DNA of 49,960 bases, from assembly GCA_021199655.1 (NCBI GenBank), contig JAJQHQ010000098.1:1-49960 (forward strand), read 5' to 3'. The stretch is from Lachnospiraceae bacterium (GTDB lineage: Bacteria > Bacillota > Clostridia > Lachnospirales > Lachnospiraceae). A program made the translations under genes and the position numbers. Shown here piece after piece: positions 9,790 to 39,872 of the stretch. A model generated the notes under the pieces. The model was not told the origin of the DNA and did not search any database. It saw nothing but the letters and a program-made list of their open reading frames with translations. Within the stretch, counting starts at the first letter, position 1, and every line of letters starts with the position of its first letter.

Positions 9790-9803
9790 AATGATGATTT
9801 AGG

Positions 9804-9991
9804 GTAACTATTCAGGACAGTACTTCGCACTTGCTGCGAAGTACGTATGAAAACGTATATTATGTGGGGAAAAGCCCCATCGCGGCGCTGAACGTCCAGT
9901 GGACGTTCGCTTAGCGCCGACCGAAGCGGCAGCGGAGACGCGATTTTAAATGGGCTTTTCCCTCGTAACTGTGCAGGTACTGAACAGTTAC
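9804..9991 (+). mobile_element. 188-bp MITE with an exact 8-bp target duplication
   Basis: The terminal inverted repeats are GTAACTATTCAG (9804-9815) and CTGAACAGTTAC (9980-9991). The flanks are identical: GATTTAGG at 9796-9803 and again at 9992-9999. Inside are a hairpin (GTACTTCGCA, 9820-9829, with 9835-9844) and a long foldback (9867-9880 with 9950-9962) that encloses nested stems (9883-9889/9913-9919 and 9891-9898/9900-9907). It has no coding capacity. It is the best-preserved long member of the GTAACT family in this window. Confidence 0.9.
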
Positions 9992-10011
9992 GATTTAGGA
10001 TTCAGAAACAG

Positions 10012-10054
10012 AAAAGCAGTCTTTTTCCATGGCAGGGGAAGGACTGCTTTTTTT
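10012..10054 (+). terminator. Rho-independent terminator before clpB
   Basis: AAAAGCAGTC pairs with GACTGCTTTT, with further pairing of TTCC and GGAA toward the loop, followed by a T run. It probably ends the gdhA transcript beyond the inserted MITE. Confidence 0.8.
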
Positions 10055-10090
10055 ATGCGCACTGTCAGGTAATAAAAAAGATTCTGAAAA

Positions 10091-10133
10091 TTAGCACTCA
10101 CCTCTTGACTTGGCTAACAAACGGTGTTATAGT
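10091..10133 (+). promoter_or_regulatory. clpB promoter with a CIRCE-like HrcA operator
   Basis: TTGACT (10105-10110) and TATAGT (10128-10133) are 17 bases apart. Overlapping the -35 box is TTAGCACTC (10091-10099), nine bases, then CTTGGCTAA (10109-10117). This fits the CIRCE operator TTAGCACTC-N9-GAGTGCTAA with a perfect left half and a partial right half. It predicts heat-shock control of clpB by HrcA, although the degenerate half may weaken binding. Confidence 0.8.
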
Positions 10134-10152
10134 GCGGTTGTATGAAAGAAAC

Positions 10153-10179
10153 GTAACTGTGAAAATATGGAACGGTTGC
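10153..10179 (+). mobile_element. 27-bp GTAACT-family mini-element in the clpB leader
   Basis: It begins GTAACTGTGAA and ends GGAACGGTTGC. The flanks AAAGAAAC (10145-10152) and GAAGAAAC (10180-10187) match at seven of eight bases, as expected of an aged target duplication. It lies between the clpB promoter and its start. Confidence 0.65.
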
Positions 10180-10222
10180 GAAGAAACAGAAAAACAGTAA
10201 AAACAGTAAAAACTGAAAAACA

Positions 10223-10255
10223 CATGATCCGGCGGAAGACAGAGCCGGGATCATG
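10223..10255 (+). promoter_or_regulatory. Hairpin in the clpB 5' leader
   Basis: CATGATCC (10223-10230) pairs with GGATCATG (10248-10255), extended inward by GGC/GCC. It ends about 11 bases before the ribosome site and could affect translation or RNA stability. This role is inference. Confidence 0.5.
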
Positions 10256-10279
10256 TCGTAAGTGATAAGGAGGGAGCTT

Positions 10280-12883
<2,604 letters not shown>

Positions 12884-12958
12884 GACCGGCGGAATCAGAA
12901 AAAGGGGCGCGGATAGGCGCCCCTGCAGAGTAAAAATGAAGGACAGAGGAGCAAAACA

Positions 12959-13135
12959 ATGGAACTACCCAATGACCCGATGATTTTATTAAGTTATATC
13001 AACACTCAGCTTCGCGACAATTACGCGTCCCTCGACGACCTGTGCGCGGGGCTGGGCGCCTCCAAAGAGATGATTCTGGAGAAGCTGGCCGCGGTGGATT
13101 ATGAGTATGATATGGAGAAGAATGCGTTTGTGTGA
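12959..13135 (+). CDS. DUF4250 domain protein
   Basis: A 58-residue protein beginning MELPNDPMILLSYINTQLRD and ending YDMEKNAFV. This matches the short DUF4250 family of Clostridia: an N-L/P-N-D-P opening and a predicted helix-turn-helix-like body (SLDDLCAGLGASKEMILEKL). Its function is unknown; the fold suggests a small nucleic-acid-binding protein, which is inference. GAGGAG lies upstream of the ATG. It is 75 bases after clpB and may be co-transcribed with it, since the hairpin between them has no T run. A terminator follows. Confidence 0.85.
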   Translation: MELPNDPMILLSYINTQLRDNYASLDDLCAGLGASKEMILEKLAAVDYEYDMEKNAFV

Positions 13136-13175
13136 TTACGAAAAACCATACAATATGGTTAATGAATTCTTGTTC

Positions 13176-13211
13176 AGAAAAAGTCGGACGCTGATTCGTC
13201 TGGCTTTTTCT
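13176..13211 (+). terminator. Terminator after the DUF4250 gene
   Basis: AGAAAAAG pairs with CTTTTTCT, with inner GACG/CGTC pairing around a six-base loop. The A/T-rich arms would work in either direction. Confidence 0.75.
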
Positions 13212-13265
13212 ATGTACACCTGCGCGTAGGGAAATACAGTTTTCTTAACATAATTCTGCTGAAAG

Positions 13266-13345
13266 GTAACTGTTCAGTACCTTCACAGTTACTTTGAAGA
13301 CTTGCTGCTCTTCCTACAATTTGTATGAAAAAAGATATTATTTTC
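13266..13345 (+). repeat. Decayed GTAACT-family element
   Basis: It starts with a complete 27-bp palindrome (GTAACTGTTCAG at 13266, ending CACAGTTAC at 13292). It continues with sequence resembling the body of the 188-bp MITE: ACTTGCTGC, then GTATGAAAA and TATTAT. A right end and target duplication are not recognisable. With the promoter at 13353 it fills most of the 381-base gap before the methyltransferase gene. Confidence 0.65.
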
Positions 13346-13352
13346 CTAAGAA

Positions 13353-13388
13353 TTGACATTGCCAAAGAAATTGTACAAATGATACAAT
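13353..13388 (+). promoter_or_regulatory. Possible promoter and operator of the methyltransferase gene
   Basis: TTGACA at 13353-13358 is followed at 15 bases by TACAAA. The -10 region lies in an inverted repeat, ATTGTA (13370-13375) and TACAAT (13383-13388), that could be a regulator site. The spacing is not ideal and the call is tentative. Confidence 0.4.
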
Positions 13389-13516
13389 AATTCATCAAAA
13401 AATGATCGCGTGAAAGCTGTTTTGACTACAGAAAAAACAGGCGCGGGATATTTTGGTGAACAGATTGACTAATCTTATGGAAATGCAGAATGTGAATAAG
13501 AAGGAGGAACGCAAAT

Positions 13517-14551
13517 ATGTTGACACCGAAACAAAATATGCTTGAAGTGATCCGCGGGGGTAATCCGGATCGAATCGTGAACCAGTACGAGGCGGTACAG
13601 CTTCTGATGCATCCTTTTATGTTTTCGAGCCCTCTGCTCGAGCCGGGGCAGGAGAATGTCGTGAATGCGTGGGGCGTGACGAATACGTTTCCGAAAGGAG
13701 TACCCGGAGCGTTCCCGGTACATACGCCGGATAAGATCGTGGTAAAAGATATCGAGAACTGGAGAGACTATGTGCATGCGCCGTCTCTCAAATTTTCACA
13801 GGAACAGTGGGATATGGTGAAAGCAACATATGACGCTGTAGACGGTGAGCAGTCCTTTAAGGCGGCGTTTGTGGCGCCGGGACTTTTTGAGCAGACACAT
13901 CATCTCTGCGAGATTTCCAATGCACTGATGTACTACATTACCGATGAGGATGAAATGCATGATCTGGTTAAATATCTGACAGAGTGGGAACTGGAACTGG
14001 CTGAGGGCATTTGTTCGAATCTTCATCCGGATGCGCTGTTCCATCACGATGACTGGGGCGGTCTGGACAGCACTTTTATGAGTCCGGCAATGTTTGAGGA
14101 TTTCTTTTTGGAACCGTATAAGCAGATCTACGGATACTATCACAGCCACGGCGTAGAGCTCGTGATCCATCATTCCGATTCCTACGCGGCGACACTTGTG
14201 CCGGATATGATCGAAATGGGGATCGACGTGTGGCAGGGCTGCATGAGAACGAATAATCTCCCGGAACTGATTAAGAAATACGGCGGAAAGATCAGCTTTA
14301 TGGGCGGCATTGAGAACCGCGCCGTAGATTATGAAGGCTGGACAGACGAGAACTGTGAGGCAGTCGTGCGGAGCGTCTGTGAGGAATGCGGAAATAAGTA
14401 TTTTATCCCGTGTATCGCGCAGGGCGGACCAGGATCGGTCTATCCGGGCGTTTACATGTCTCTGTGCAATGCGATTGATAAGCTGAATGCGGAAAAATAT
14501 GGCATTAACGCGGCGGAATCTACAAGACTTCCGTGGCAGATCATGTTCTGA
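13517..14551 (+). CDS. UroD-family corrinoid methyltransferase
   Basis: A 344-residue TIM-barrel protein of the uroporphyrinogen decarboxylase/MtaA superfamily. Gene context (activase and corrinoid protein downstream) argues for methyl transfer between a substrate and a corrinoid protein rather than heme synthesis. Where MtaA-type enzymes have a His-x-Cys zinc motif, this protein has VIHHSDS, keeping His but not Cys; a later Cys (YFIPCIAQGGPG) may be another metal ligand. That pattern fits demethylating, substrate-side members better than MtaA, but the substrate is not readable. AAGGAGGA precedes ATG 13517. It has its own terminator, so it is transcribed apart from the genes below. Confidence 0.85.
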   Translation: MLTPKQNMLEVIRGGNPDRIVNQYEAVQLLMHPFMFSSPLLEPGQENVVNAWGVTNTFPKGVPGAFPVHTPDKIVVKDIENWRDYVHAPSLKFSQEQWDMVKATYDAVDGEQSFKAAFVAPGLFEQTHHLCEISNALMYYITDEDEMHDLVKYLTEWELELAEGICSNLHPDALFHHDDWGGLDSTFMSPAMFEDFFLEPYKQIYGYYHSHGVELVIHHSDSYAATLVPDMIEMGIDVWQGCMRTNNLPELIKKYGGKISFMGGIENRAVDYEGWTDENCEAVVRSVCEECGNKYFIPCIAQGGPGSVYPGVYMSLCNAIDKLNAEKYGINAAESTRLPWQIMF

Positions 14552-14649
14552 CAGATGCAGAAGCCATATTTCCTGTATCAGGTTATGTTTCGTTTGGGCT
14601 TGAAGTGAGACAGAAAGGCTTATGTTATTCAGAAATAATTTCTGAGTGA

Positions 14650-14696
14650 AATGCTGTCACGCTCTGTGAAAAGTGCATTGTGGGACAGCATTTTTT
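14650..14696 (+). terminator. Terminator after the methyltransferase gene
   Basis: AATGCTGTC (14650-14658) pairs with GACAGCATT (14684-14692) across a 25-base loop, followed by a run of T. Confidence 0.7.
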
Positions 14697-14706
14697 GTGC
14701 TACAAT
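14678..14706 (+). promoter_or_regulatory. Candidate promoter of the activase operon
   Basis: TTGTGG (14678-14683) and TACAAT (14701-14706) are 17 bases apart. The site overlaps the preceding terminator and lies 70 bases before the activase start. The -35 box is poor. Confidence 0.45.
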
Positions 14707-14775
14707 TATTTTAAATATCAGTTCGGGAGCAGGCGGCCTGTGGTCTGCTGTTCATCACGAAAGGAGGAACGTCCT

Positions 14776-16584
14776 ATGGTTCGGGTTTCTTTTGTCAGAG
14801 AAGAAAAGAGCATCTGTGTTCCGGAAGGTACAACTGTGCTGGAAGCGGAGATCATGGCAGGATTGAAGCCGGATGCGCCCTGCGGAGGCGCGGGCAGGTG
14901 CGGAAAATGCCTGGTGCGGATCACCGAGGGACCTTCTGATGGAAACGCGGACACTTCCCCTGTACGTGCCTGCCGGACGAAAGTGACGTCGGATCTCTTT
15001 GTGGATACGATGATTCCACGAAATAAAGAACTTTCGATATTGACTGAAGGTTATCTGCGCCCGGTGACGTATCATCCGGGACTTTCTGTACATAAAATAC
15101 AGCTTGATAAGCCGGAGACCGGTGATAAACGCTCCGACTGGGGGCGGATGCTGGGACAGCTTGCAAAGGCGGAGCCGGGAATACAGCCAGGGATAAAGCC
15201 GGATTCGCAGCCGGATATACGGATGGAAGAAATGTCGGGCATACAGCCGGATCCGGCGCTTGCCTCAACGTTGTATGACAGGCGTGGAAAATCTGCCGTG
15301 TGGTATGCGATCCATACCGAAGACGAGATTCTGGAGCTGCGCCGTGAAGCAGGACGGGTCTGTTTTGCAGCGTTTGACATTGGGACAACGACAGTGGTGG
15401 GCTACCTTCTGGATGCTGAGGATGGCCGTACCCTGGCTGTGGAAAGCCGGTTGAATCCGCAGACGCAGTACGGAGCAGACGTGATCATGCGGGCAAACTA
15501 TGCACTTGAGCATGGAACGGAGGTTCTTGCTGCATGCATCCGTACTGCAGTCAATGAGATGCTGAAGAAGCTTGCCGGAAAAGCTCAGATAAGTACGGAA
15601 GATATTTTTCAGGTGAGTATCGTGGGTAATACCTGTATGCACCATCTGTTTTTAGGAATCTCACCGGCAAGTCTGGTACACGCACCCTATACGCCTGCGA
15701 TCAGCCGGCGTATGACCCTGCGCGCGGCGGACTATGGTTTAAATATCCATCCGAAGGCGCAGATTCTGATGCTGCCGGTCATTGCCGGCTATGTCGGCGC
15801 GGATACCTGCGCCTGTCTGATGGCGGTGAGACCGGATCAAAAAGATGAGATGACGCTGCTGCTTGACATCGGCACCAATGGAGAAATGGTGCTTGGAAAC
15901 CGCAAAAGAAGGGTCGCCTGTTCGACTGCGGCCGGTCCTGCGTTTGAGGGCGCAAAAATCACCTGTGGGATGCGGGGAGCCGCGGGGGCGGTAGACCATG
16001 TTTTTTACGAAAATGGAGTCTGGAACTATTCGACCATAGGCGGTGGGCCGGCGGTGGGACTGTGCGGTTCCGGTCTGATCGATCTGGTGGCATGCCTGCT
16101 TCGTGCCGGAAAGATTGATGAAAACGGCAGGCTTGAGAGCGGTCAGGAGGATCCGCAGGTCTTTGTACTTGTTGCTCCGGAGGATTCCGGGAACGGAAAA
16201 GGCGTCTGGCTGACCCGGAAGGATGTCGGAGAAGTGCAGCTTGCGAAGGCTGCGATCGCTGCCGGCATACAGCTTTTAATGGAAGAACTTGGGGTAACGG
16301 AGGAGGATATTTCCGAAGTCTGTATTGCCGGAGCGTTTGGCAGCTATATGAATCCGTTGAGCGCCGGGGAGATCGGCATGTTTCCATGTTCACTGACCGG
16401 CCGCGTGCGGGCAATTGGGAATGCCGCCGGTGAGGGCGCGAAGCTGGCTCTGATCAGTCGGGAAGAGCTGGAAATGTCAGATGAGCTGGCTTACGGAACG
16501 GATTTTATTGAACTGGCGGCGCTGCCGGAATTTCAGGATTGTTTTATTGAACATCTGGAATTTGAAAATGCGCGGCAGCTGTGA
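14776..16584 (+). CDS. Reductive activator of corrinoid proteins (RACo, Fe-S plus ASKHA)
   Basis: An ATP-dependent activase that re-reduces a corrinoid protein from inactive Co(II) to Co(I). The 602 residues start with a plant-type 2Fe-2S domain: Cys36, Cys42, Cys45 and Cys66. The C-terminal ASKHA/DUF4445 domain has FDIGTTTVVGYL, VSIVGNTCMHHL, LLLDIGTNGEM, GLCGSGLIDL and CIAGAFGSYMNP. Residues about 136-170 are a low-complexity insert rich in G-I-Q-P-D repeats, not expected in the family. ATG 14776 is chosen because AAGGAGG lies nine bases upstream. The stop codon falls inside a 27-bp GTAACT-family repeat. It probably serves the corrinoid protein at 17336. Confidence 0.92.
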   Translation: MVRVSFVREEKSICVPEGTTVLEAEIMAGLKPDAPCGGAGRCGKCLVRITEGPSDGNADTSPVRACRTKVTSDLFVDTMIPRNKELSILTEGYLRPVTYHPGLSVHKIQLDKPETGDKRSDWGRMLGQLAKAEPGIQPGIKPDSQPDIRMEEMSGIQPDPALASTLYDRRGKSAVWYAIHTEDEILELRREAGRVCFAAFDIGTTTVVGYLLDAEDGRTLAVESRLNPQTQYGADVIMRANYALEHGTEVLAACIRTAVNEMLKKLAGKAQISTEDIFQVSIVGNTCMHHLFLGISPASLVHAPYTPAISRRMTLRAADYGLNIHPKAQILMLPVIAGYVGADTCACLMAVRPDQKDEMTLLLDIGTNGEMVLGNRKRRVACSTAAGPAFEGAKITCGMRGAAGAVDHVFYENGVWNYSTIGGGPAVGLCGSGLIDLVACLLRAGKIDENGRLESGQEDPQVFVLVAPEDSGNGKGVWLTRKDVGEVQLAKAAIAAGIQLLMEELGVTEEDISEVCIAGAFGSYMNPLSAGEIGMFPCSLTGRVRAIGNAAGEGAKLALISREELEMSDELAYGTDFIELAALPEFQDCFIEHLEFENARQL

Positions 16585-16601
16585 AGGTACTGAACAGTAA
16601 C
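16575..16601 (+). repeat. GTAACT-family 27-bp element overlapping the activase stop
   Basis: A left arm GCAGCTGT, core GAAGGTACTGA and right arm ACAGTAAC. The activase stop codon (16582-16584) lies inside it. The left arm is diverged; no convincing duplication flanks it. Confidence 0.65.
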
Positions 16602-16716
16602 AATATGAATGGACCGCGGCAGGATTTTCATGAAGCGTTGCCAAACTGAGGAAGAATACGATAAACCTTGCAGGAAAAGCGATGCGCTCATTTGCGATGG
16701 ATGGGAGGAATCCGAA

Positions 16717-17256: not shown

Positions 17257-17263
17257 AATGAAA

Positions 17264-17315
17264 GCAACTGTTCAGAACAGCAATCCGTACTTGTTGTGAA
17301 GGTATTGAACAGTTG
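17264..17315 (+). repeat. 52-bp GTAACT-family element
   Basis: The ends GCAACTGTTCA (17264-17274) and TGAACAGTTG (17306-17315) are inverted repeats. The core contains GTACTTGTTGTGAAGG, related to the hairpin of the 188-bp MITE. It fills the gap between the DUF2284 and corrinoid genes. No matching 8-bp flank is seen. Confidence 0.7.
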
Positions 17316-17335
17316 AAAAGGAAAAGGGGAAGATT

Positions 17336-17971: not shown

Positions 17972-17974
17972 TAG

Positions 17975-18001
17975 ATTGCTGTGAAAAGACGGAACAGTTA
18001 C
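17975..18001 (+). repeat. Degenerate GTAACT-family element
   Basis: GCTGTGAAAAGAC followed by GGAACAGTTAC resembles the right two thirds of the 27-bp element. It starts just after the corrinoid-protein stop. Flanks match at only five of eight bases. Confidence 0.5.
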
Positions 18002-18031
18002 CATGATGGGAAAAGCAGGTGAGGAACACAA

Positions 18032-19690
18032 GTGAAGCTTTCATCAGTCTGGCTGTATGAACAGCTGAAAAAGGAATATAAAATTACGGGGGCTGCGGGT
18101 CTGTCCGGCAGGGACGGTTACCTGCGCCCTCTTTTTGGCTGTGAACCGTGCGGCAGGGAGCATGCGGGACATGGAAATGATGTATCGGGCGGAAACGGAT
18201 CGGGTACCGGTCATGTATATGTGATACCTGTCGAATCTGAGCGGGAGATCAGAACATGGACAGGCACGGGGCTGCAGGACAGAAGCTTTTTCGTATTCTG
18301 CCAGAACGGGACGGATCAGGGGAAATTTTCCGATACGGAATCGGGAGACAGAGATGCAGGAGGGACCTTTGAGACGAAAACTGCGGACGGGAATGCAGGC
18401 GGTGTCTGGGTGAGTGTGGCGATAGAAGGAAAAGATGAGAGCCGTGGTGCGGCTGAGATCCTGAATTATATTCAGACGGCATTTGACAGCTGCGATGAAT
18501 GGGAAGATGAGGTCATCCGACTAATGACCGGGAATGCCGGAATTGCGAAGGTATTGGAGCTTAGCGCCGGGTTCCTTAAGAATCCGCTGATGGTGATGGG
18601 CACGGATTTTTCTCTGATTGCTTCTGCGGGAATGGAAAAGCTGCCTGAGCGGGCAAGGCTGTTTACAGAAGACAGCGTAAATGTCGATTATATGAACGCC
18701 CTGCTGCAGGATGAGGAGTATCAGAAGATTACACAGGCGAAGCATACCGTACTGTATCCGGGCTACATCAGCGGCTATCGTACGGTGAACCGCAACCTGT
18801 TTGTCAATGGTCAGCCGGCTTATCGGCTGGTGCTCACTGAATGTGAGAGTCCGGTCACGCAGGGCTGCATCTGCATTCTGGAGACATTAAGCAGACATCT
18901 GGAATATCAGCTCTCCAGTGAAATGCCTGCTTCCATGAAGGGAACGCTGGAGACCATTTTCCAGAGTATTTTGACTGACCGGACTGCGGATTACGTGCAG
19001 ATCAGCCGCAGGCTGACGGCGGCCGGGTGGAGCGGCGATGATGAGTATCTCTGTCTTATATTGCAGATTACCTACCTGAATCAGAAGCAGATTTCTACAG
19101 GAGCCATCTGTCATTACATCCAGAAACAGCTGAAAGATTCTGTCAGTTTCCTGTATCAGGAGGAAGTGGTCAGCTTTTTTGATCTCTCCCGTTTGGGACT
19201 GAATGAAGAAGAAGTGGCCTCGAAGCTGGTTTATTTTATTCGGGACAGTTATCTGAAGGCCGGGTACAGCCGGACTATGCGGGGGCATATGAATCTGCGC
19301 CGTCAGTATGTGCAGGCACGCACGGCGCTGGATGTGGGAAGCCGCAAAAAACCGTACCTGTGGATTCATACTTTTAATCAGGTGGCGCTGACTTATATCA
19401 TCGAGCAGTCTACGAGAAAGCTGCCGGCTAATATGATCTGCCATGAAGGGCTCCTGCGGCTGAAAGAGCAGGACGAAAAAAACCACACGGAGTATATGCT
19501 GACGCTGAAGACGTATCTGGATCAGCAGCTGAACGCGACGCAAACTGCAAAGGAGCTTTTTATTCACAGAAGTACCTTCCTGTATCGTCTGGAAAAGATA
19601 AAAGAAATCCTGCACTCAGATCTGGAGGATGCGGAAGAAATCTTTTATCTGGAGCTTTCTTTCCGTCTGCTGGAACAGAATGGTTCGTAA
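18032..19690 (+). CDS. PucR-family transcription regulator
   Basis: A 552-residue regulator with the PucR/CdaR-type C-terminal helix-turn-helix (NATQTAKELFIHRSTFLYRLEKIKE, about 507-531). The middle (about 180-290) looks like a ligand-sensing domain. Residues about 28-125 are Gly/Asp-rich and poorly ordered, unusual for the family. The start is GTG 18032 behind AGGTGAGG. It closes the corrinoid gene cluster on the same strand and probably senses the methylated substrate; that role is inferred from position. The TAA stop overlaps the next repeat. Confidence 0.85.
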   Translation: MKLSSVWLYEQLKKEYKITGAAGLSGRDGYLRPLFGCEPCGREHAGHGNDVSGGNGSGTGHVYVIPVESEREIRTWTGTGLQDRSFFVFCQNGTDQGKFSDTESGDRDAGGTFETKTADGNAGGVWVSVAIEGKDESRGAAEILNYIQTAFDSCDEWEDEVIRLMTGNAGIAKVLELSAGFLKNPLMVMGTDFSLIASAGMEKLPERARLFTEDSVNVDYMNALLQDEEYQKITQAKHTVLYPGYISGYRTVNRNLFVNGQPAYRLVLTECESPVTQGCICILETLSRHLEYQLSSEMPASMKGTLETIFQSILTDRTADYVQISRRLTAAGWSGDDEYLCLILQITYLNQKQISTGAICHYIQKQLKDSVSFLYQEEVVSFFDLSRLGLNEEEVASKLVYFIRDSYLKAGYSRTMRGHMNLRRQYVQARTALDVGSRKKPYLWIHTFNQVALTYIIEQSTRKLPANMICHEGLLRLKEQDEKNHTEYMLTLKTYLDQQLNATQTAKELFIHRSTFLYRLEKIKEILHSDLEDAEEIFYLELSFRLLEQNGS

Positions 19691-19713
19691 CTGTTCAGTA
19701 TTTTCACAATTAC
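19687..19713 (+). mobile_element. 27-bp GTAACT-family mini-element at the regulator stop
   Basis: The arms are GTAACTGT and ACAATTAC. The TAA stop of the PucR gene is inside it. AATGGTTC (19679-19686) and AATCGTTC (19715-19722) flank it and match at seven of eight bases, with one extra base at the right edge. Confidence 0.65.
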
Positions 19714-19722
19714 AAATCGTTC

Positions 19723-25102: not shown

Positions 25103-25153
25103 GTAACTGATTCAGTACCTTCACAGTTACAAGGTACTGGCCTGAATCGTTAG
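25103..25153 (+). mobile_element. 51-bp GTAACT-family MITE with an exact 8-bp target duplication
   Basis: The ends GTAACTGATTCAG (25103-25115) and CTGAATCGTTAG (25142-25153) are imperfect inverted repeats. A complete palindrome lies inside the left part (25103-25130). GTTCATTC flanks it exactly at 25095-25102 and 25154-25161. The right copy contains the ybaK stop codon, so insertion occurred at the very end of that gene. Confidence 0.9.
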
Positions 25154-25883: not shown

Positions 25884-25948
25884 CGTCAGCGATGCAGAAA
25901 AGCTTTGCGTTTCGCTGACGATATAGAATGAAGGTACTGAACAGTTAC
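25884..25948 (+). repeat. Palindrome plus GTAACT-family half element upstream of argC
   Basis: CGTCAGCGA (25884-25892) pairs with TCGCTGACG (25912-25920) across a TGCAGAAAAGCTTTGCGT loop. Then GAAGGTACTGAACAGTTAC (25930-25948) is the right two thirds of a GTAACT-family element. A close relative of 25891-25920 lies inside argJ. With the promoter this accounts for most of the 314-base gap. Confidence 0.7.
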
Positions 25949-30810: not shown

Positions 30811-30837
30811 GTCACTGTGCAGGTGCTGAACAGTGAC
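30811..30837 (+). repeat. 27-bp GTAACT-family element with compensated arms
   Basis: The arms are GTCACTGT and ACAGTGAC: the usual A and T are replaced by C and G together, so pairing is kept. The flanks GAATCATA and GAATCAGG share six bases. It stands eight bases before another copy. Confidence 0.7.
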
Positions 30838-30845
30838 GAATCAGG

Positions 30846-30872
30846 GTAACTGTGAAGGTACGGAACAGTTAC
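30846..30872 (+). repeat. 27-bp GTAACT-family element
   Basis: Perfect arms GTAACTGT and ACAGTTAC enclose GAAGGTACGGA. The flanks GAATCAGG (30838-30845) and GAATCGGA (30874-30881) match at six of eight bases. It sits 24 bases before the next start codon. Confidence 0.75.
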
Positions 30873-30896
30873 AGAATCGGACAGGAGGACTGCAAT

Positions 30897-33150: not shown

Positions 33151-33261
33151 TGATTGCTGCAAAGAGAGCCGGGATGAATGCATTACGGGCATTGGAAGCG
33201 TTCCTGTGAGAAAAGGGACTCAGAGACAAAGATGTAAAAAGATGCGGAACGGCTATTAAAA

Positions 33262-33288
33262 GCAGCTGGGAAGGTACTGAACAGTTAC
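33262..33288 (+). repeat. GTAACT-family 27-bp element after oppA
   Basis: The right part (GAAGGTACTGAACAGTTAC) is intact and the left arm (GCAGCTGG) diverged. No flanking duplication was found. Confidence 0.6.
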
Positions 33289-33309
33289 CAGATACGAGGA
33301 AAAGGTGTT

Positions 33310-33337
33310 GGGGGCATATTCTGCCCCCGGCTCTTTT
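33310..33337 (+). terminator. Terminator after the binding-protein gene
   Basis: GGGGGCA (33310-33316) pairs with TGCCCCC (33322-33328), followed by GGCTCTTTT. It would let only part of transcription continue into the permease genes. Confidence 0.75.
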
Positions 33338-33351
33338 CTGTGATTTTTGAT

Positions 33352-33438
33352 GCGCAGAGCTGCGTAAGGAGTTTTCCGGCTGGAGCCGGACGCAGCTCGC
33401 GCAGGCGAGCAGGAGGCAGGCACGCCTTCTCCCGCTCG
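33352..33438 (+). repeat. Structured repeat element, copy B (three stems)
   Basis: Stem 1 is GCGC-A-GAGCTGCGT (33352-33365) with ACGCAGCTC-GCGC (33390-33402). Stem 2 is CCGGC/GCCGG (33376-33380/33385-33389). Stem 3 is CGAGCAGGAG/CTCCCGCTCG (33406-33415/33429-33438, one mismatch). Relative to copy A at 23848, at least four paired positions differ but remain paired. With the terminator and repeat it fills the 336-base gap before oppB. Confidence 0.8.
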
Positions 33439-33486
33439 ATCGGAGAGCAGTGCTACGTAAGGAAAAAAAGAAAAGGACTGATACAT

Positions 33487-34428
33487 ATGGAAGAACTGAC
33501 TTATATTGCTAAAAGGATCCTGCAGATGATCCCGGTGCTGCTGATCATCACGTTCGTCATATTCTTCGGGATGCGGCTGATCCCCGGGGATCCGGCGCTG
33601 CTTCTGCTGGGAAACAGAGCCAGCGACGAGGCGCTGGCGGCCATGCACAAAAAGCTGGGGCTGGATCAGCCTTTGATCACGCAGTATTTTCTTTTCCTGA
33701 AGCAGTGCATTACATTTGATTTCGGCGATTCCCTGTCCATGAAGACCTCGGTCACGGGCCTGTTCCGGCAAAAGGCGGTCATTACGGTTTCACTGACGCT
33801 TATGACCATTTTCTTCGCTATGCTGATCAGTTTTCCGCTGGGTTATATATCCGGCATGATGCATGACAGGAAGATCGGAGCGTTCATTGATTCCCTGTCG
33901 CTGATCTTTGTTTCCGTGCCCGAATTTCTGATCGGACTGATCATGCTGATCGTTTTTGCGTTGAATCTGAAGCTGTTTCCGGTGGGAGGCTGGGGCACGA
34001 CTGTGCCGGAGCATATCCGAAGCCTGATTCTGCCGTCCTTTACCGGAGCACTGGGAACTGCGGCTCTGGTGCTGCGGAACATCCGCGGCAATGTGATCGA
34101 CGTGCTGCAGAAGGATTATGTCGATTTTGCGTACAGCAAGGGACTTTCTCCGTGGAGAATTCGCAGCAGCTACATTTTCAGAAATGTGATGATCTCTACC
34201 GTGACGCTGCTGACAATGCGCATGACCTATATGCTTGCCGGCAGCATTGTGATCGAGAGTGTATTCGCGCTTCCGGGGCTGGGGCAGATGATGCTGAACG
34301 CGATCCTGGCGAGGGATTATCCCGTGGTTCAGGGGACGGTATTTCTGTTTGCAATCATTGTACTGGTGATGAATCTGATCACGGATGTGCTTTATTCAAT
34401 CCTGGATCCAAGAGTGAAGCTTAACTGA
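33487..34428 (+). CDS. Peptide ABC transporter permease (OppB/DppB type)
   Basis: A 313-residue inner permease with six predicted helices. The N-terminus (ILQMIPVLLIITFVIFFGMRLIPGDPA) is the family hallmark of DppB/OppB, and the EAA-type loop contains YVDFAYSKGLSPWRIRSSYIFRN, which contacts the ATPase. It pairs with the OppC-like permease 23 bases downstream. ATG 33487 is chosen because family members start here behind AAAGGAC; the open frame extends back into the structured repeat without a site. Confidence 0.95.
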   Translation: MEELTYIAKRILQMIPVLLIITFVIFFGMRLIPGDPALLLLGNRASDEALAAMHKKLGLDQPLITQYFLFLKQCITFDFGDSLSMKTSVTGLFRQKAVITVSLTLMTIFFAMLISFPLGYISGMMHDRKIGAFIDSLSLIFVSVPEFLIGLIMLIVFALNLKLFPVGGWGTTVPEHIRSLILPSFTGALGTAALVLRNIRGNVIDVLQKDYVDFAYSKGLSPWRIRSSYIFRNVMISTVTLLTMRMTYMLAGSIVIESVFALPGLGQMMLNAILARDYPVVQGTVFLFAIIVLVMNLITDVLYSILDPRVKLN

Positions 34429-34451
34429 CAGGGGAAAGGAAGAGACGAATC

Positions 34452-35276
34452 ATGAAAAGAATAAAACGAAAGAAATTTTCTATTGCGTTCTGGATTGCTT
34501 CCGCTTTTCTCGCCCTGATCGTTCTTATGGCGGTCGTTCCCGGATTGTTTACTCCCTATGATCCGATCGGTCAGGATATGACGGCGCTGATGCAGAAGCC
34601 TTCCTCCGCGCACTGGTTTGGCACGGACAATCTGGGCAGGGATATTTTTTCACGGGTGGTCTACAGCGCCAGGCTGGATCTGGAGATCGGTATTTTTGCG
34701 ATGCTGGTCCCGGCAGTGGTCGGTACGATGGTGGGACTGCTCTCCGGATATTACGGCGGGAAGGTGGATGCCATCATCATGCGCATTCTGGATATTTTTA
34801 CCGCATTTCCGCTGATGGTCCTGGTGATCGCGATCGTGGCGATCCTCGGTTCCGGCATTAAGAATCTGTTTATTGCCATCTGGCTTGTGGGATGGCGCGA
34901 GTACGCGAAGCTGGTGAGAGGGGAGACGCTGGTGGCCAAAAACAGTGAATATGTAGCTGCGGCCAGAACTCTGGGCTTCTCAAACGCGAGAATTATGCTG
35001 CGTCATGTGCTTCCGAATGTCGTAAACGGCGCTTTTGTCTATGCAATCTCGGATATTATGCTGTGCATGCTGATGGGGGCGTCATTAAGCTTTCTCGGGC
35101 TGGGAGTTCCCGCACCGACGCCGGAGTGGGGCGCGATCATTGCGGACGGAAAGCTGTTTATCACGACCGCACCGTGGATCGTGGTATTTCCGGGCATTAT
35201 GCTGGCACTGACGGGAATCTCCATCAGCATTATCGGAGAACAGGTTTCTGCAGTCCTGCAGAAGACGACATCATGA
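34452..35276 (+). CDS. Peptide ABC transporter permease (OppC/DppC type)
   Basis: A 274-residue permease with six predicted helices. Features are the N-terminal FTPYDPIGQDM, HWFGTDNLGRDIFSRVVYSARLDL (the OppC signature) and the ATPase-coupling loop EYVAAARTLGFSNARIMLRHVLPN. It forms the heterodimeric channel with the preceding OppB-like protein. AGGAAGAGA precedes ATG 34452. Confidence 0.95.
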   Translation: MKRIKRKKFSIAFWIASAFLALIVLMAVVPGLFTPYDPIGQDMTALMQKPSSAHWFGTDNLGRDIFSRVVYSARLDLEIGIFAMLVPAVVGTMVGLLSGYYGGKVDAIIMRILDIFTAFPLMVLVIAIVAILGSGIKNLFIAIWLVGWREYAKLVRGETLVAKNSEYVAAARTLGFSNARIMLRHVLPNVVNGAFVYAISDIMLCMLMGASLSFLGLGVPAPTPEWGAIIADGKLFITTAPWIVVFPGIMLALTGISISIIGEQVSAVLQKTTS

Positions 35277-35292
35277 CCGGGAGGATGAGAGG

Positions 35293-36324
35293 ATGGCTGG
35301 AAGTGTTTTGCTGGAAGTCAAAGATCTGCATACCGACTTTGCTTCCGAAGATAAAAATGTGCATGCGGTAAACGGCGTGAGCTTTTCCATTATGGAAGGA
35401 GAAATATTCGGACTGATCGGGGAGAGCGGCTGCGGAAAAAGCGTGACCTGCCGATCTTTGATCCGTCTGGTAAAAAAGCCCGGAAAGATTGTGGGAGGCC
35501 AGATCGTTTATCAGGGAAAAAATATTCTGGAATGCAGTGATAAGGAAATGCAGAAGATCCGCGGGAAAGAGATCGGCATTATTTTTCAGGAGCCGATGAC
35601 GACTCTGAATCCGGTTCTGACGATCGGACAGCAGCTGATGGAATCCTTTAAAGAGCCGGGGATGACAAAAAAAGAAAAGAAAACGCATGCTGCCCAAATG
35701 CTGAGACTGGTGGGGATCCCTTCCCCGGAGGAGCGCCTTGACAGCTATGCACATGAGTTTTCCGGCGGAATGAGGCAGCGGGCAATGATCGCAATCGCGC
35801 TTGCGTCCAGACCTCACCTTTTGCTGGCGGATGAACCGACTACCGCGCTGGATGTGACCGTACAGGATCAGATCATCCGGCTGCTTCTGCGGCTGCGGGA
35901 AGAACTGAAGATGAGCATGGTGCTGGTGACGCATGATTTGGGTGTTGCCTCCATGATGTGTGATCATATTGCGGTGATGTATGCGGGAGTGATCATGGAG
36001 AGCGCGGATGCCGGGACGATTTTCAAACGGCCGGCCAATCCGTATACCTATGGGCTGATGCGTTCGATCCCGTCTCTGGAAAAAAAGGGCGGCGAGCTTT
36101 ATTCCATCGAAGGAGCTCCGCCGGATCTGGACCATATGCCTGAGGGCTGCCCGTTTGCGCCGCGGTGCGAATTCTGTGAAGAGATCTGTCGGAAAAGCAT
36201 GCCGGAGCTGGCGGAGACGGAACCGGGACATTTTACCAGGTGTCATCGTGCGGAATGCATGGGAAGCCTTCTGGCTGACAGTTTCCTTGCGGATACAGTG
36301 AAAGGAGGAACGTCGGATGTCTGA
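35293..36324 (+). CDS. Peptide ABC transporter ATPase (OppD/DppD type)
   Basis: A 343-residue ATPase. Walker A is GESGCGKS, the Q-loop is FQEPMTTLNP, the signature is FSGGMRQRAMIA and Walker B is LLLADEPTTALD. The OppD/OppF C-terminal domain ends with a cysteine cluster (CPFAPRCEFCEEIC) found in many members and sometimes holding an Fe-S cluster. It starts 16 bases after oppC behind GGAGGATGAGAGG, and its end overlaps oppF by eight bases. Confidence 0.95.
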   Translation: MAGSVLLEVKDLHTDFASEDKNVHAVNGVSFSIMEGEIFGLIGESGCGKSVTCRSLIRLVKKPGKIVGGQIVYQGKNILECSDKEMQKIRGKEIGIIFQEPMTTLNPVLTIGQQLMESFKEPGMTKKEKKTHAAQMLRLVGIPSPEERLDSYAHEFSGGMRQRAMIAIALASRPHLLLADEPTTALDVTVQDQIIRLLLRLREELKMSMVLVTHDLGVASMMCDHIAVMYAGVIMESADAGTIFKRPANPYTYGLMRSIPSLEKKGGELYSIEGAPPDLDHMPEGCPFAPRCEFCEEICRKSMPELAETEPGHFTRCHRAECMGSLLADSFLADTVKGGTSDV

Positions 36325-37330
36325 ACAGAAACAGGAGCAGGTGATCTGCGTAAGCCATCTTTGCAAAACCTTTCCGGTCAAACAGAACCTTCAGGAGATT
36401 GCCGCCCGGAAAGAACAGAAGGTCGTGCGTGCGGTCGATGATGTGAGCTTTTCCATAGACCGGGGTGAAACGCTGGGACTCGTGGGAGAAAGCGGCTGCG
36501 GGAAAAGTACGCTTGCAAGGACGCTGATCCGCCTGTACCGGCCGGATGCCGGCTCGATGGAATTAAATGGCTACGGCGATCTGGCAGGTCTGGAAGGAAA
36601 AGCGTTAAAAGAGGCCAGAAAGGACATACAGATGGTTTTTCAGGATCCGTATTCTTCCCTGAATCCAAGGATGACGATCCGCCAGATCTTTTACGAGATC
36701 CTGTCGGTCCACCATATTTGCCCAAAGGAAGAATATGAGAAACGGACGATCGAGATCCTGGAAAAGACCGGAATGCCGTCCTATGCGCTGGATCGGCGAC
36801 CATCCGCCTTTTCAGGCGGTCAGCGGCAGAGAATCGGCATTGCGAGAGCGCTGGTGATGAACCCGGAGCTTCTGATCGCGGATGAGCCGGTCTCGGCTCT
36901 GGATGTTTCAATCCAGGCACAGATCATCAATCTGTTGATGAAGCTGAAAAAGGAACTGAATCTGACAATGCTGTTTATTTCTCATGATCTGCGGGTCGTC
37001 CAGTATCTTTCGGATCGGGTGATGGTCATGTATCTGGGCCATGTGGTGGAGCTGGCAAAGACTCAGGAACTGTTTGCGCATCCGGCACATCCCTATACCA
37101 GAATACTGATCGATGCGGCTCCGGCCATCGGCGCAGTCCGTGCCGGAGAAGAGAGTGCGATCCAGGGGGAGCCGCCCAGTCCGATCCATGTGCCGAAGGG
37201 CTGTGCGTTTTCTCCGCGCTGTCCATACGCGACTGAACGCTGCAGACAGGAGGAACCGGCACTGACCGGGGATACGGAAGGCAGACTGGTAAGGTGCCAT
37301 TATCCGCTGATCGACGGCTTTTACGGGTGA
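36317..37330 (+). CDS. Peptide ABC transporter ATPase (OppF/DppF type)
   Basis: A 337-residue ATPase, partner of OppD. Walker A is GESGCGKSTLART, the Q-loop VFQDPYSSLNPRMT, the signature FSGGQRQRIGIARAL and Walker B LLIADEPVSALD. The C-terminal region has GCAFSPRCPYATERC. AAAGGAGGAACG lies inside the end of oppD, before ATG 36317, and the genes overlap, so translation is coupled. Confidence 0.95.
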   Translation: MSEQKQEQVICVSHLCKTFPVKQNLQEIAARKEQKVVRAVDDVSFSIDRGETLGLVGESGCGKSTLARTLIRLYRPDAGSMELNGYGDLAGLEGKALKEARKDIQMVFQDPYSSLNPRMTIRQIFYEILSVHHICPKEEYEKRTIEILEKTGMPSYALDRRPSAFSGGQRQRIGIARALVMNPELLIADEPVSALDVSIQAQIINLLMKLKKELNLTMLFISHDLRVVQYLSDRVMVMYLGHVVELAKTQELFAHPAHPYTRILIDAAPAIGAVRAGEESAIQGEPPSPIHVPKGCAFSPRCPYATERCRQEEPALTGDTEGRLVRCHYPLIDGFYG

Positions 37331-37344
37331 AAATTTTAAGTCCC

Positions 37345-37371
37345 GTAACTGTGAAGGTATGGAACAGTTAT
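37345..37371 (+). repeat. GTAACT-family 27-bp element after oppF
   Basis: The arms are GTAACTGT and ACAGTTAT around GAAGGTATGGA. It lies 14 bases after the oppF stop and 29 bases before the next gene. No flanking duplication is seen. Confidence 0.7.
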
Positions 37372-37400
37372 GATGATACGGAATATGGGAGTGAGTGAGG

Positions 37401-38873
37401 ATGGAATTGCTGGATGAAGCATTTGTGAAAAAGGAAATGACTTACTGGAATGTCCCCGGGATGGCTGTGGCTATCTGCCGTGATGGGGAGGTGCTTTTTG
37501 AAAAGGGATACGGCTGTCGTTCGCTTGCTTCAAAGGAACCGATGACGCCATCTACGTTAAGCGGGATCGCCTCCTGCTCGAAATCGTTTACTTCGGCGGT
37601 TCTGGCGGCACTGGTGGATCGGGGCCTGCTGGATTATGACACTCCGGTCAGGGAGTACCTGCCGGATTTTGCGCTGATGGATCCGGTCGCCACCGCACAG
37701 GCGACGGTAAGAGATATGCTTTATCACCGGACGGGACTGGCCGGTCATGACGCAATGTGGCCGGACGATACAGTAAGCCGCGATGAGTGGATGCACAGGC
37801 TGCGCTATCTGGAGCCAAACAGGCCGTTCCGCAGTGCAACGCAGTACAGCAACGTGATCTATTCCCTGCTAGGGCACATCGCGGAGCGCATCACGGGACA
37901 TACCTGGGAAGAACTGGTGCGGGAGCTGATCTTTGAGCCGCTTGGCATGAAGCGCAGCTGCCTGACGGTGGAGGAAATGCGCAGGGACAGCAACTATGCC
38001 GTCGGTTATTTTGAGCGGGACAGACATGGCGTACTGGAAGAAATGCCTGCCTGGGAGATGAATGTGGGGGCTCCGGCAGCGGCCGTGAATACCTGTGTCC
38101 ATGAAATGATGAGCTGGCTCATGCTGCATCTGGAAAACGGCGTATATGAGGGAAAACGCCTTTTTTCGGAGAATGTCATGCAGCAGATGCACAGGGGATG
38201 CGTGGACATGGATCTGTTCCCCTGGAGTTATCCGGAGATTCCTTCCTGCGGCTTTTACGGTATGGGATGGAAATCCTTCTTTTACCGGGGAATGCCGTTT
38301 GTATTTCATACAGGAGAGCTCGAGGGATACTGCGCGATGCAGATTCTTTTGCCGGAGCAGAAGCTGGGGATCATGATCCAGGTGAACCGGCACAAACCTC
38401 TCTCTCCGTTCCTCAATGAGATCGCTTACACATTGATCGATCATGCGCTCGGTATGCCTGATGTCGACTGGGCAAAAAGGCTGCATGAGTTTGACGGTCA
38501 CTTTGGCGGAACGCATTATGACTGGCGGGTGAATCTGCTGTCGGATGCGCCTGTCCCCGGTACCTGTCTTTCTCATGAGATTGCGGCGTATACCGGGACT
38601 TTTGAGAGTAAAGCCTATGGGAAGATACAGGTGAAACAGGAAAAGGATGGCCTGATCCTGTATTACAAACACTGGGCGTTTCCGATGGAGCATTACCATT
38701 ATGACACGTTCCGGATCCGGGAACTGAAAGAAGATACCATTTTTGTCACGCTGCCGATGACCTATCATTATGAGGAGAACAGCGGAGCCATTGACGGCTG
38801 CTATCTGAAGCTGGAACCGGAAACCTCGTCCATATGGTTCCAAAAACTGGATGATGAGCCGGTTTCCGCCTGA
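37401..38873 (+). CDS. Serine hydrolase, beta-lactamase / penicillin-binding fold
   Basis: A 490-residue class C beta-lactamase-like hydrolase. The nucleophile motif SxxK is Ser58-Cys-Ser-Lys61 (SGIASCSKSF), the second motif is YSN (TQYSNVIYS), and HTG (VFHTGELEGY) replaces KTG. A C-terminal beta-barrel-like extension (about 370-490) resembles DUF3471-type domains. There is no signal peptide, so it appears cytosolic. Placed right after a peptide transporter, it may hydrolyse an imported peptide or D-amino-acid compound; that is inference. ATG 37401 follows GGGAGTGAG. Confidence 0.88.
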   Translation: MELLDEAFVKKEMTYWNVPGMAVAICRDGEVLFEKGYGCRSLASKEPMTPSTLSGIASCSKSFTSAVLAALVDRGLLDYDTPVREYLPDFALMDPVATAQATVRDMLYHRTGLAGHDAMWPDDTVSRDEWMHRLRYLEPNRPFRSATQYSNVIYSLLGHIAERITGHTWEELVRELIFEPLGMKRSCLTVEEMRRDSNYAVGYFERDRHGVLEEMPAWEMNVGAPAAAVNTCVHEMMSWLMLHLENGVYEGKRLFSENVMQQMHRGCVDMDLFPWSYPEIPSCGFYGMGWKSFFYRGMPFVFHTGELEGYCAMQILLPEQKLGIMIQVNRHKPLSPFLNEIAYTLIDHALGMPDVDWAKRLHEFDGHFGGTHYDWRVNLLSDAPVPGTCLSHEIAAYTGTFESKAYGKIQVKQEKDGLILYYKHWAFPMEHYHYDTFRIRELKEDTIFVTLPMTYHYEENSGAIDGCYLKLEPETSSIWFQKLDDEPVSA

Positions 38874-38948
38874 TATGAGACAGAAAAAACTGTCGGGAAC
38901 GGATGGACAGTGTGGGAGGGAAATTTTTGGAAGAGAAAGGCTTTTTAT

Positions 38949-39650
38949 ATGGAACAGCGGGTTGTCTGTGTGCGGGAATGCACTCAGGGCGGCCTGATTC
39001 GCTGCCTGTATGAAATGCGGAAATGTAAGGGCGCCGGAATTATCGAAATCCCCACAGGCTGTACGGAAATCCGCTGTATGTCGGATGGGGTCAATTCTCA
39101 GATGGAAATCATGGAAGGATTAACGAAAGCCGAAGAGTGCAGCTTCTCCCGATACGACAGGTGCGTGGGCATCCGGCTCACACCCGGTGTTTCCGTCCGA
39201 AAAGAAGTGCTTGAAAAGGATCCCGGCCTGAAGCAGCAGCTGATGAAACAGATGCTGAGTGAAATCTCTTTAAAAGACCGTTTGCAGGAGTTCGAACAGA
39301 TTCTCCCGGAAGGCCTGCTTGCCGACTGCCCGGAACCGGTCAGAGAGCTGGTGCAGATGCTGCAGCAGAATAATGGGTGTGTGAATGTAAACACCTGCCT
39401 GCGGGAAATGGCATACAGCCAGCGCCGGATGGAAAGCCTGTTCAAAGAAGCGCTGAAGCTTTCTATGAAAAAATATGCGATGATCGTGAAGCTTCAGATC
39501 TGCCTTGGCAGAATGGAAAAGCAGATTCCGGAGGTCTGGAATGACCTGCAGTTTTATGATCAGACACATTTTATCAAATCATTTAAAACATTTCTATCCG
39601 TGACACCCACACAGTATGAGAAAAACAGAACAGAGATGGGCGTATATTAA
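38949..39650 (+). CDS. AraC-type helix-turn-helix regulator
   Basis: A 233-residue protein whose last 90 residues form an AraC-like double helix-turn-helix (VNVNTCLREMAYSQRRMESLF, then DLQFYDQTHFIKSFKTFLSVTPTQYEKN). The N-terminal 140 residues resemble the short sensor part of AraC-family members without a clear cupin. ATG 38949 follows GAAAGG at eight bases; an upstream GTG at 38910 has no better site. It probably controls the peptide operon and hydrolase it follows; that is inference. Confidence 0.8.
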   Translation: MEQRVVCVRECTQGGLIRCLYEMRKCKGAGIIEIPTGCTEIRCMSDGVNSQMEIMEGLTKAEECSFSRYDRCVGIRLTPGVSVRKEVLEKDPGLKQQLMKQMLSEISLKDRLQEFEQILPEGLLADCPEPVRELVQMLQQNNGCVNVNTCLREMAYSQRRMESLFKEALKLSMKKYAMIVKLQICLGRMEKQIPEVWNDLQFYDQTHFIKSFKTFLSVTPTQYEKNRTEMGVY

Positions 39651-39752
39651 GGACAGCTAAAATTCGCAGCAGCTGTTCTTTGTCTTCACATCTGCGGGGG
39701 ATTATCGCAAACGGCGGCAAATCGTATGGATATGCATTTCATCAGAAAAAGA

Positions 39753-39782
39753 ATGGCACTTTCAGGGAAAGCGTGGTATACT
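39753..39782 (+). promoter_or_regulatory. Weak promoter candidate for the sugar ABC operon
   Basis: TATACT (39777-39782) has an 18-base spacer to ATGGCA (39753-39758). It lies 90 bases before the ATPase start and just before the 22-bp element. Confidence 0.4.
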
Positions 39783-39803
39783 GTCAGCAATCAAAAGGGA
39801 CGG

Positions 39804-39825
39804 GTAACTGTCCTGAATCAGTTAC
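39804..39825 (+). mobile_element. 22-bp GTAACT-family element with an exact 8-bp target duplication
   Basis: Arms GTAACTG...CAGTTAC with core TCCTGAAT. AGGGACGG flanks it exactly on both sides (39796-39803 and 39826-39833). It is barely longer than two inverted ends, yet shows the same duplication size as the 188- and 246-bp members. It lies in the leader of the sugar ABC operon. Confidence 0.85.
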
Positions 39826-39872
39826 AGGGACGGAACGACTCTGATGCTGACATGGAGTCTGAGGAGAATGAC

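What the first reader, a model, noticed from the sequence alone, without database searches (positions are those of the whole stretch)
9796..39833. A family of very small insertion elements: 22-188 bp, related ends, exact 8-bp target duplications
Seen: ends near GTAACTGTTCAG/CTGAACAGTTAC recur about 16 times. Three insertions have perfect 8-bp direct repeats exactly at their borders: 9804-9991 (GATTTAGG), 25103-25153 (GTTCATTC) and 39804-39825 (AGGGACGG). Two 27-bp copies have 7/8 flanks (10145/10180; 19679/19715). Each exact flank would occur by chance about once in 65,000. Known: a fixed-size duplication is the mark of transposase-made insertion. Inference: the elements are mobilised in trans, and even copies made of little more than two ends can move or arise by internal deletion after insertion. 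The 22-bp element is far shorter than described MITEs.
Basis: partly seen in the sequence, partly recalled or inferred. Interest (0 to 1): 0.85.

Follow-up and report, generated by a model that had tools for sequence, protein, structure and literature searches.

The report
Miniature transposons that collapse to ends
A bacterium, probably of the family Lachnospiraceae, is sprinkled with short parasitic DNA inserts that seem to borrow another element's transposase, and its 'tiny elements' of 20-50 bp look mostly like what remains after such inserts shrink in place, much as 'solo LTRs' are left by retrotransposons.

Summary
In detail: three insertions with exact 8-bp flanking repeats sit at the stated coordinates. 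The 12-bp end occurs 186 times in the 3.98-Mb genome, reversed control 0. The full units are non-coding MITEs, mostly 132-143, 187-188 or 233-236 bp. Their ends (GTAACTRTTCAG) and 8-bp duplications point to IS66-family transposases: two intact IS66 elements with related ends and exact 8-bp repeats were found in relatives, and a published active one has a GTAACTGCTCAGCA end and an 8-bp repeat (PMC12898284). Sister species hold empty sites lacking exactly the element plus one 8-bp repeat (21 of 30 negative comparisons; 14 sites, one an artefact). The 21-51 bp forms, however, are best read as collapsed MITEs, not tiny mobile elements. At five orthologous sites, and less clearly a sixth, a 27-bp form faces a 135-, 85-, 50- or 31-bp or right-half form elsewhere. 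55 of 69 short forms have a length predicted by deletion between 5-6 bp direct repeats. Independent 27-bp mobility is not excluded, and the exact autonomous partner was not found. Nearest precedent: 'terminal-only' PATEs of Haloquadratum (PMC3119063).

The parts
9804..9991 (-). Full-length 188-bp MITE (27-bp palindromic left end at 9965-9991, right end at 9804); target duplication GATTTAGG at 9796-9803 and 9992-9999
   Evidence: exact empty site in sister genome G304; folds as DNA at z -8.3
10153..10179 (-). Old 27-bp solo end, 7/8 flanks, upstream of a ClpB-like gene; same place in G304, G307 and G308
13266..13292 (+). 27-bp solo end identical to the MITE left end, no clear target duplication; mostly missing from G308
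16575..16601 (-). 27-bp solo end, 3 mismatches to the left-end consensus, no target duplication seen
17264..17316 (+). 53-bp degenerate copy, flanks with 2 mismatches
17975..18001 (-). Degenerate 27-bp solo end; a diverged version in G308, not recognisable in G314
19687..19714 (+). 27-bp solo end plus one A; target repeat AATGGTTC / AATCGTTC; 50-bp form at the same site in G304, empty in G308
25103..25153 (+). 51-bp collapsed MITE, exact GTTCATTC repeats; 51-bp form in G304 and 52-bp form in G308 at the same site
25922..25948 (-). Half-degenerate 27-bp end (6 mismatches)
30811..30837 (-). 27-bp solo end beside another one; G308 lacks it plus one 8-bp repeat
30846..30872 (-). 27-bp solo end; a diverged copy is in G308
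33262..33288 (-). 27-bp solo end, also in G308 at the same place
37345..37371 (-). 27-bp solo end, also in G308 at the same place
39804..39825 (+). 22-bp remnant: outer tips of both MITE ends plus one base; exact AGGGACGG repeats; same site and flanks in G308, not at this site in G304 and G307
48176..48421 (.). 246-bp MITE of a sister subfamily (ends GTTACTATTCAC), exact GGGAATGT repeats; 12-bp ends as in an intact IS66 element of G306 and beside the IS66 remnant on contig C6

Best explanation
The elements are MITEs moved by IS66-family transposases, probably of the branch that includes ISBst12. The transposase, supplied in trans, recognises the GTAACTRTTCAG ends and inserts a hairpin-rich unit of 132-236 bp, duplicating 8 bp of target (insertion and duplication shown by empty sites; transposase identity inferred from ends and duplication length). 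The left end is itself a 27-bp palindrome (GTAACTGTTCAG-TAC-CTTCACAGTTAC), so its inner arm ends in AGTTAC, a direct repeat of the outer tip of the right end. After insertion, deletion between such 5-6 bp direct repeats, probably by slipped replication across the hairpins (inferred), removes the core and leaves 27 bp (AGTTAC), 21-22 bp (ACTGT), 31 bp (AGTAC), 50-52 bp (CGAGG, GTACCT) or 77-78 bp (TTACG) between unchanged target duplications. The small elements are thus mostly 'solo ends', comparable with solo LTRs.
For: Empty sites: the 188-bp element is missing from G304 together with one GATTTAGG; of 103 site comparisons (reciprocals counted) 30 are negative and 21 of these exactly -8, from 14 sites of which one (30846) is an artefact of its neighbour. 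States of one insertion, five sites: C10:63617 full 135 bp, G304 27 bp, same AAATATGG repeats; window 19687 27 bp, G304 50 bp, G308 empty; G304:C31:59611 27 bp against a right-half remnant in G000; G304:C81 27 bp, G307 31 bp at one site; G308:C89:72004 27 bp, G304 85 bp, G000 empty. Sixth, weaker: G307:C39 27 bp against 22 bp in G308 and G000, which fits a two-tip form with 0 mismatches but also a 27-mer less 5 bp with 1. Lengths: 55 of 69 TSD-flanked short forms have a length predicted from direct repeats of 5 bp or more; without the 27s 9 of 23 exact (p 0.0008) and 18 of 23 within 1 bp (p 8e-6). Age: exact repeats in 13 of 17 full copies against 14 of 48 27-bp copies among those with up to 2 mismatches (p 0.0012), and 51 of 65 against 14 of 27 among those with up to 1 (p 0.022). 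In G222, of 11 sampled copies whose inner repeat is AGTCAC, 0 are 27-bp solos (10 longer forms, 1 unclear); 2 of 2 with AGTTAC are. Transposase: intact 2358-bp IS66 element, ends GTTACTGTTCAC / GTTACTGTTCAG, TSD GCCGGAAT; 2267-bp one in the genus, TSD ACTATTTT; 12 of 25 IS66 loci from a family search carry an end within 1 mismatch of the three end types tried; published ISDge4 (PMC12898284, passages).
Against: No IS66 element with the longer MITE end (GTAACTGTTCAGTACC...) was found: 13 loci from ten genomes, 27 further genus loci and 7 more gave none; loci reach only 1.5 kb past the match, so some far ends were out of view. The own genome has one IS66 fragment, with the sister-type end. Only 5 non-27 short forms passed the junction fit to the consensus, with 0-4 bp of shared sequence at the junction, not 5. 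37 of 141 27-mers have neither flank pattern, and 52 more 27-mers without a repeat stand beside the 48 with one. Collapse is shown at five or six sites, not at the others. One site (G304:C31:80255 against C10:50993) has the 27-mer in the opposite orientation to the full copy and fits neither reading. Counts are not corrected for shared descent, and the predicted lengths come from three consensus copies chosen after the elements had been seen.
Confidence: 0.85

Rival explanations
1. The 27-bp units are themselves mobile: each has two outward-facing end motifs, so a transposase could insert the 27 bp directly.
For: 14 solo 27-mers with exact 8-bp repeats, 0 at shifted offsets. 27-bp sites with -8 empty sites and no longer allele seen, e.g. 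window 30811 and G304:C34:104465. The 27-mer is kept almost letter for letter in MITEs of four sampled genera whose cores differ.
Against: Five sites, and a weaker sixth, show formation in place; 27-bp copies have older flanks than full ones; forms near 21, 31, 50-52 and 77-78 bp need deletion anyway; ends 27 bp apart leave little room for a paired-end complex (inference).
Confidence: 0.13
2. Conserved regulatory palindromes or chance repeats, not insertions.
For: Some copies are shared by several species, e.g. 10153-10179.
Against: Empty sites, 8-bp duplications, 0 at shifted offsets, patchy distribution (20 of 299 family genomes with a match to the 27-mer).
Confidence: 0.01
3. REP/REPIN-like palindromes spread by a RAYT transposase.
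For: Size of 20-40 bp, palindromic, high copy number.
Against: Ends are GTAA, not the GTAG or CGTC tags named in the title of PMC3733652; a 132-236 bp parent with an 8-bp duplication exists. RAYT genes were not searched for.
Confidence: 0.01

Closest known systems
IS66 family, ISBst12 group (e.g. ISDge4 of Deinococcus geothermalis, PMC12898284, passages read)
   Same: 8-bp duplication; ends GTAACTGCTCAGCA (11 of 12 as the MITE end) and GTGACTACTCAGCA; IS66 transposase in the intact relatives found here
   Different: The MITEs carry no gene; their palindromic left end was not seen in any IS66 element found here; the two intact relatives have a small extra reading frame before the transposase
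PATEs of Haloquadratum walsbyi, 'terminal-only' 52-bp forms (PMC3119063, section 30 read)
   Same: Core lost by deletion between direct repeats that are near-terminal palindromes; complete in one strain and terminal-only in the other; the same doubt whether the short form also moves
   Different: Tied to IS605-type transposons, archaeal host, 22-bp and 19-bp repeats and 52-bp remnants against 5-6 bp repeats and 21-31 bp remnants; here retained 8-bp duplications mark the original insertion
Small dispersed repeats of cyanobacteria (Elhai et al. 2008; not held, known from citations in PMC3116915 and PMC2884548 and from recall)
   Same: About 20-bp dispersed repeats that might be mobile
   Different: Other hosts; sequences not compared
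Solo LTRs of retrotransposons (recall)
   Same: Element reduced to one end by deletion between direct repeats, target duplication kept
   Different: Here 5-6 bp repeats and a DNA transposon

Membership tests
MITE | Short, without a transposase gene, terminal inverted repeats, target duplication, many copies | tested here: met
   too short to code for a transposase
MITE | Ends shared with an autonomous element able to move it | tested here: inconclusive
   12-bp ends shared with or close to those of IS66 elements in relatives, but no partner with the longer MITE end and none intact in the own genome
IS66 family (as donor of the transposase) | 8-bp duplication | tested here: met
IS66 family (as donor of the transposase) | Ends like those of a known member | tested here: met
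   MITE end 11 of 12 as ISDge4; GTAA as the family's typical tip is recall
ISBst12 group of IS66 | A single transposase gene | tested here: inconclusive
   In two intact relatives the large frame matches PF03050; each also has a small frame before it, 89 aa in L203 (not scanned) and about 102 aa in L325 (no Pfam match above cut-off)
REP/REPIN | GTAG or CGTC tag at one end | tested here: not met
   ends are GTAAC or GTTAC; tags from the title of PMC3733652
REP/REPIN | RAYT transposase gene | not tested
   not searched
Cyanobacterial small dispersed repeats | Sequence relation to the published SDR families | not tested
   paper not held

The most novel reading that the evidence does not exclude
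The 27-bp palindromic end is a complete minimal transposon: two abutting IS66-type ends that a transposase can insert on their own, with an 8-bp duplication. The same end would then serve both as the mobile heart of the larger MITEs, which would explain why it is kept almost letter for letter across genera with different cores, and as an independent 27-bp element.
Probability: 0.13. Interest if true: 0.8.

Novelty: new member of a known kind. Interest (0 to 1): 0.45.

Why it matters
High-copy palindromes of 20-30 bp occur in many bacterial genomes and their origin is often open. Here a set can be traced from empty site to 135-bp MITE to 27-bp scar, with 8-bp duplications as proof of insertion. 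It supplies a testable rule: list the short direct repeats of the parent MITE and predict the scar lengths. It also warns that a tiny palindrome with perfect target repeats is not by itself evidence for a tiny mobile element.

Tried and rejected
Rejected: chance (shift controls; shuffles; reversed pattern); a long element of 300-5000 bp bearing the MITE ends in the loci held (three candidates with 7/8 flanks and poor ends, none convincing); the IS66 copies of G102, G027 and G250 as partners (no such end pair found). An Rfam scan of the window at gathering thresholds found two tRNAs only. Target-site composition of full (51) and solo (14) copies was tabulated: T is commonest at position 7 and C at position 8 in both, A is rare at position 8; other positions differ and the table does not separate the hypotheses. 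Eight paper searches listed no work on an IS66-derived MITE in Lachnospiraceae; the library is open-licence only and lists were capped, so this is weak evidence of absence.

Papers: PMC12898284, PMC3116915, PMC2884548, PMC3189936 and PMC10969869: passages found by term; PMC3119063: passages and section 30; PMC3733652: listing and start of abstract; Elhai 2008: not held.

Rows dropped: the 27-mers within 60 bp (left) or 400 bp (right) of a stretch end and repeated contexts; elements within 300 bp of a stretch end and comparisons whose flanks did not align to within 25 or 20 bp of the insertion. Searches took listed places only: 13 of 30 in G222, 7 of 52 in G102, 12 of 49 in G250 (two in one stretch), 9 of 31 in G225. 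Outcome in G102: 3 longer forms, 1 solo, 3 unclear; G250: 7, 1, 4; G225: 7, 0, 2.

Full report
WHAT IS THERE. The window is contig C3 of a 3.98-Mb, 110-contig assembly. The public records that share the 27-bp end are, by their titles, mostly Lachnospiraceae and other Clostridia (80 of 110 shown, capped), so the host is taken as a Lachnospiraceae species (inference). The 12-bp end GTAACTGTTCAG occurs 92 + 94 times in the genome, the reversed control 0 times.

THE REAL UNIT. Reading 0.41 Mb of the genome showed elements of 133-135 and 187-188 bp, most with exact 8-bp repeats. They share one plan: a 27-bp palindromic left end GTAACTGTTCAGTACCTTCACAGTTAC, a core hairpin (with an extra hairpin in the longer form), a second hairpin and a right end CTGTCCTGAATAGTTAC. 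The 188-bp copy folds at -50.6 kcal/mol as DNA, z -8.3. Related units in other genera have 132-136, 141-143 and 233-236 bp, different cores and the same left end. Of 141 left-end 27-mers in 110 public loci plus the contigs read, 51 belong to longer elements with exact repeats, 14 to longer ones with 7/8, 14 are solo 27-mers with exact repeats, 13 solo with 7/8, 12 have the long shape without the repeat and 37 have neither. For the solos, shifting a flank by 1 to 6 bp gives 0 matches throughout.

INSERTION IS PROVEN. In the sister genome G304 the site of the 188-bp element reads ATGATGATTTAGGATTCAG, one GATTTAGG and no element. In G308 the site of the 27-bp element at 19687 is empty. Over 412 kb of G000, 408 kb of G304, 257 kb of G308 and 180 kb of G307, 103 site comparisons (reciprocal ones counted) gave 30 in which the other genome is shorter than the two flanks laid end to end; 21 of these are shorter by exactly 8. 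These 21 come from 14 sites; one of them (window 30846) is an artefact, because G308 does hold that copy and only its neighbour is missing.

WHY THE SMALL ONES ARE SMALL. The same insertion appears in different states in different species. (1) C10:63617: 135 bp in G000, 27 bp in G304, both between AAATATGG. (2) Window 19687: 27 bp, 50 bp in G304, empty in G308; window and G304 share the same extra A. (3) 27 bp in G304:C31:59611, a right-half remnant with its repeat in G000. (4) 27 bp in G304:C81, 31 bp with both outer tips in G307. (5) 27 bp in G308:C89:72004, 85 bp in G304, empty in G000. A sixth, 27 bp in G307 against 22 bp in G308 and G000, fits a two-tip form with 0 mismatches, but a 27-mer that lost 5 bp fits with 1, so it is weaker. 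A 187-bp copy in G000 and G308 is about 140 bp in G304 and empty in G307. The window's 51-bp element is 51-52 bp in G304 and G308 too, and its 22-bp element is shared with G308, so those collapses are older than the split from these species. The 22-bp element reads as the predicted 21-bp two-tip product plus one base; without that base allowed for, the fit has 4 mismatches.

The direct repeats of 5 bp or more in the MITE predict products of 27 (AGTTAC), 21 (ACTGT), 31 (AGTAC), 50 (CGAGG), 52 (GTACCT), 77 (TTACG) and a few longer ones. Of 69 TSD-flanked short forms 55 have a predicted length; without the 27s it is 9 of 23 exact and 18 of 23 within 1 bp. These counts include copies shared by descent. 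Against this, only 5 non-27 forms passed the gap-free junction fit, with 0-4 bp shared at the junction. Full copies have fresher repeats than 27-bp copies: 13 of 17 against 14 of 48 exact (p 0.0012), and 51 of 65 against 14 of 27 (p 0.022). In genome G222 a subfamily has the inner repeat changed to AGTCAC: none of its 11 sampled copies is a 27-bp solo (10 are 133-, 61- or 50-bp elements with their repeats, 1 is unclear), while both sampled copies with AGTTAC are solos (13 of 30 places sampled). A bad inner end would also hinder direct 27-bp transposition, so this does not decide between the two readings.

WHO MOVES THEM. The single IS66 match of the genome is a C-terminal fragment on contig C6, followed by an end of the sister type GTTACTATTCAC. 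A search of 299 family genomes with it gave 25 loci, 12 of which carry an end within 1 mismatch of the three end types tried, in the loci viewed mostly downstream of the transposase match. G104 holds an intact 2358-bp element with ends GTTACTGTTCAC / GTTACTGTTCAG and repeats GCCGGAAT; G306, in the window's genus, a 2267-bp one with GTTACTATTCAC ends and repeats ACTATTTT. The large frame of each matches the IS66 transposase family. Each also has a small frame before it, 89 aa (not scanned) and about 102 aa (no Pfam match above cut-off), so the single-gene ISBst12 plan is not settled. G014 has an IS66 gene between ends GTATCTGTTCAG and GTAACTGTTCAG, without a matching repeat. The published ISDge4 (ISBst12 group) has ends GTGACTACTCAGCA / GTAACTGCTCAGCA, an 8-bp repeat, one gene, and was caught transposing (PMC12898284, passages). 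The transposase is therefore very likely of the IS66 family; the exact partner is not in hand.

LIMITS. Whether the 27-bp form can also move by itself cannot be settled from these data: deletion and direct insertion leave the same sequence. One site (G304:C31:80255) has a 27-mer opposite in orientation to the full copy and is unexplained. That the deletions arise by slipped replication across hairpins is inference from repeats and folds.

NOVELTY. A new MITE family of a known kind. Repeat-mediated collapse to 'terminal-only' copies is described for Haloquadratum PATEs (PMC3119063, section 30), and tiny dispersed repeats for cyanobacteria (Elhai 2008, recalled and cited by others). What is added is a bacterial IS66-type case with target duplications, insertion states compared across species, and predicted lengths.

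Noticed in passing
window 48176-48421: A second MITE subfamily (246 bp, ends GTTACTATTCAC, exact GGGAATGT repeats) whose 12-bp ends equal those of an intact IS66 element in the same genus (L325 1218-3484); a 143-bp element with such ends in G304 (C34:86971) is cut to 58 and 36 bp at the same site in G000 and G308.
   Followed up: partly
window 10153-10179: A 27-bp solo end sits between a promoter-like sequence and a ClpB-like gene and is kept at the same place in four species; it could have been taken into the leader.
   Followed up: partly
window 18032-19714: The insertion at 19687 supplies the stop codon (TAA) of the upstream PucR-like gene; in the empty G308 site the gene would end with TGA at the same codon (read from the alignment).
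   Followed up: partly
L347-L386 (G222, G102, G250, G225): The 27-bp left end is almost letter-identical in MITEs of four sampled genera although their cores differ, as if the end were exchanged or under strong constraint.
   Followed up: no
L377 (G250:C4:213700-214800), 464-743: Two 132-bp MITEs in tandem, 140 bp apart, with ATCTTTTT before, between and after: one MITE plus one 8-bp repeat has been duplicated.
   Followed up: partly
G304:C31:80255-80281 against G000:C10 near 50993: A 27-bp end at a site where G000 has a full MITE plus an extra right half, in the opposite orientation; fits neither simple collapse nor simple insertion.
   Followed up: partly
window 30811-30872: Two 27-bp ends side by side, the first apparently inserted next to the second; G308 has only the second.
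   Followed up: yes
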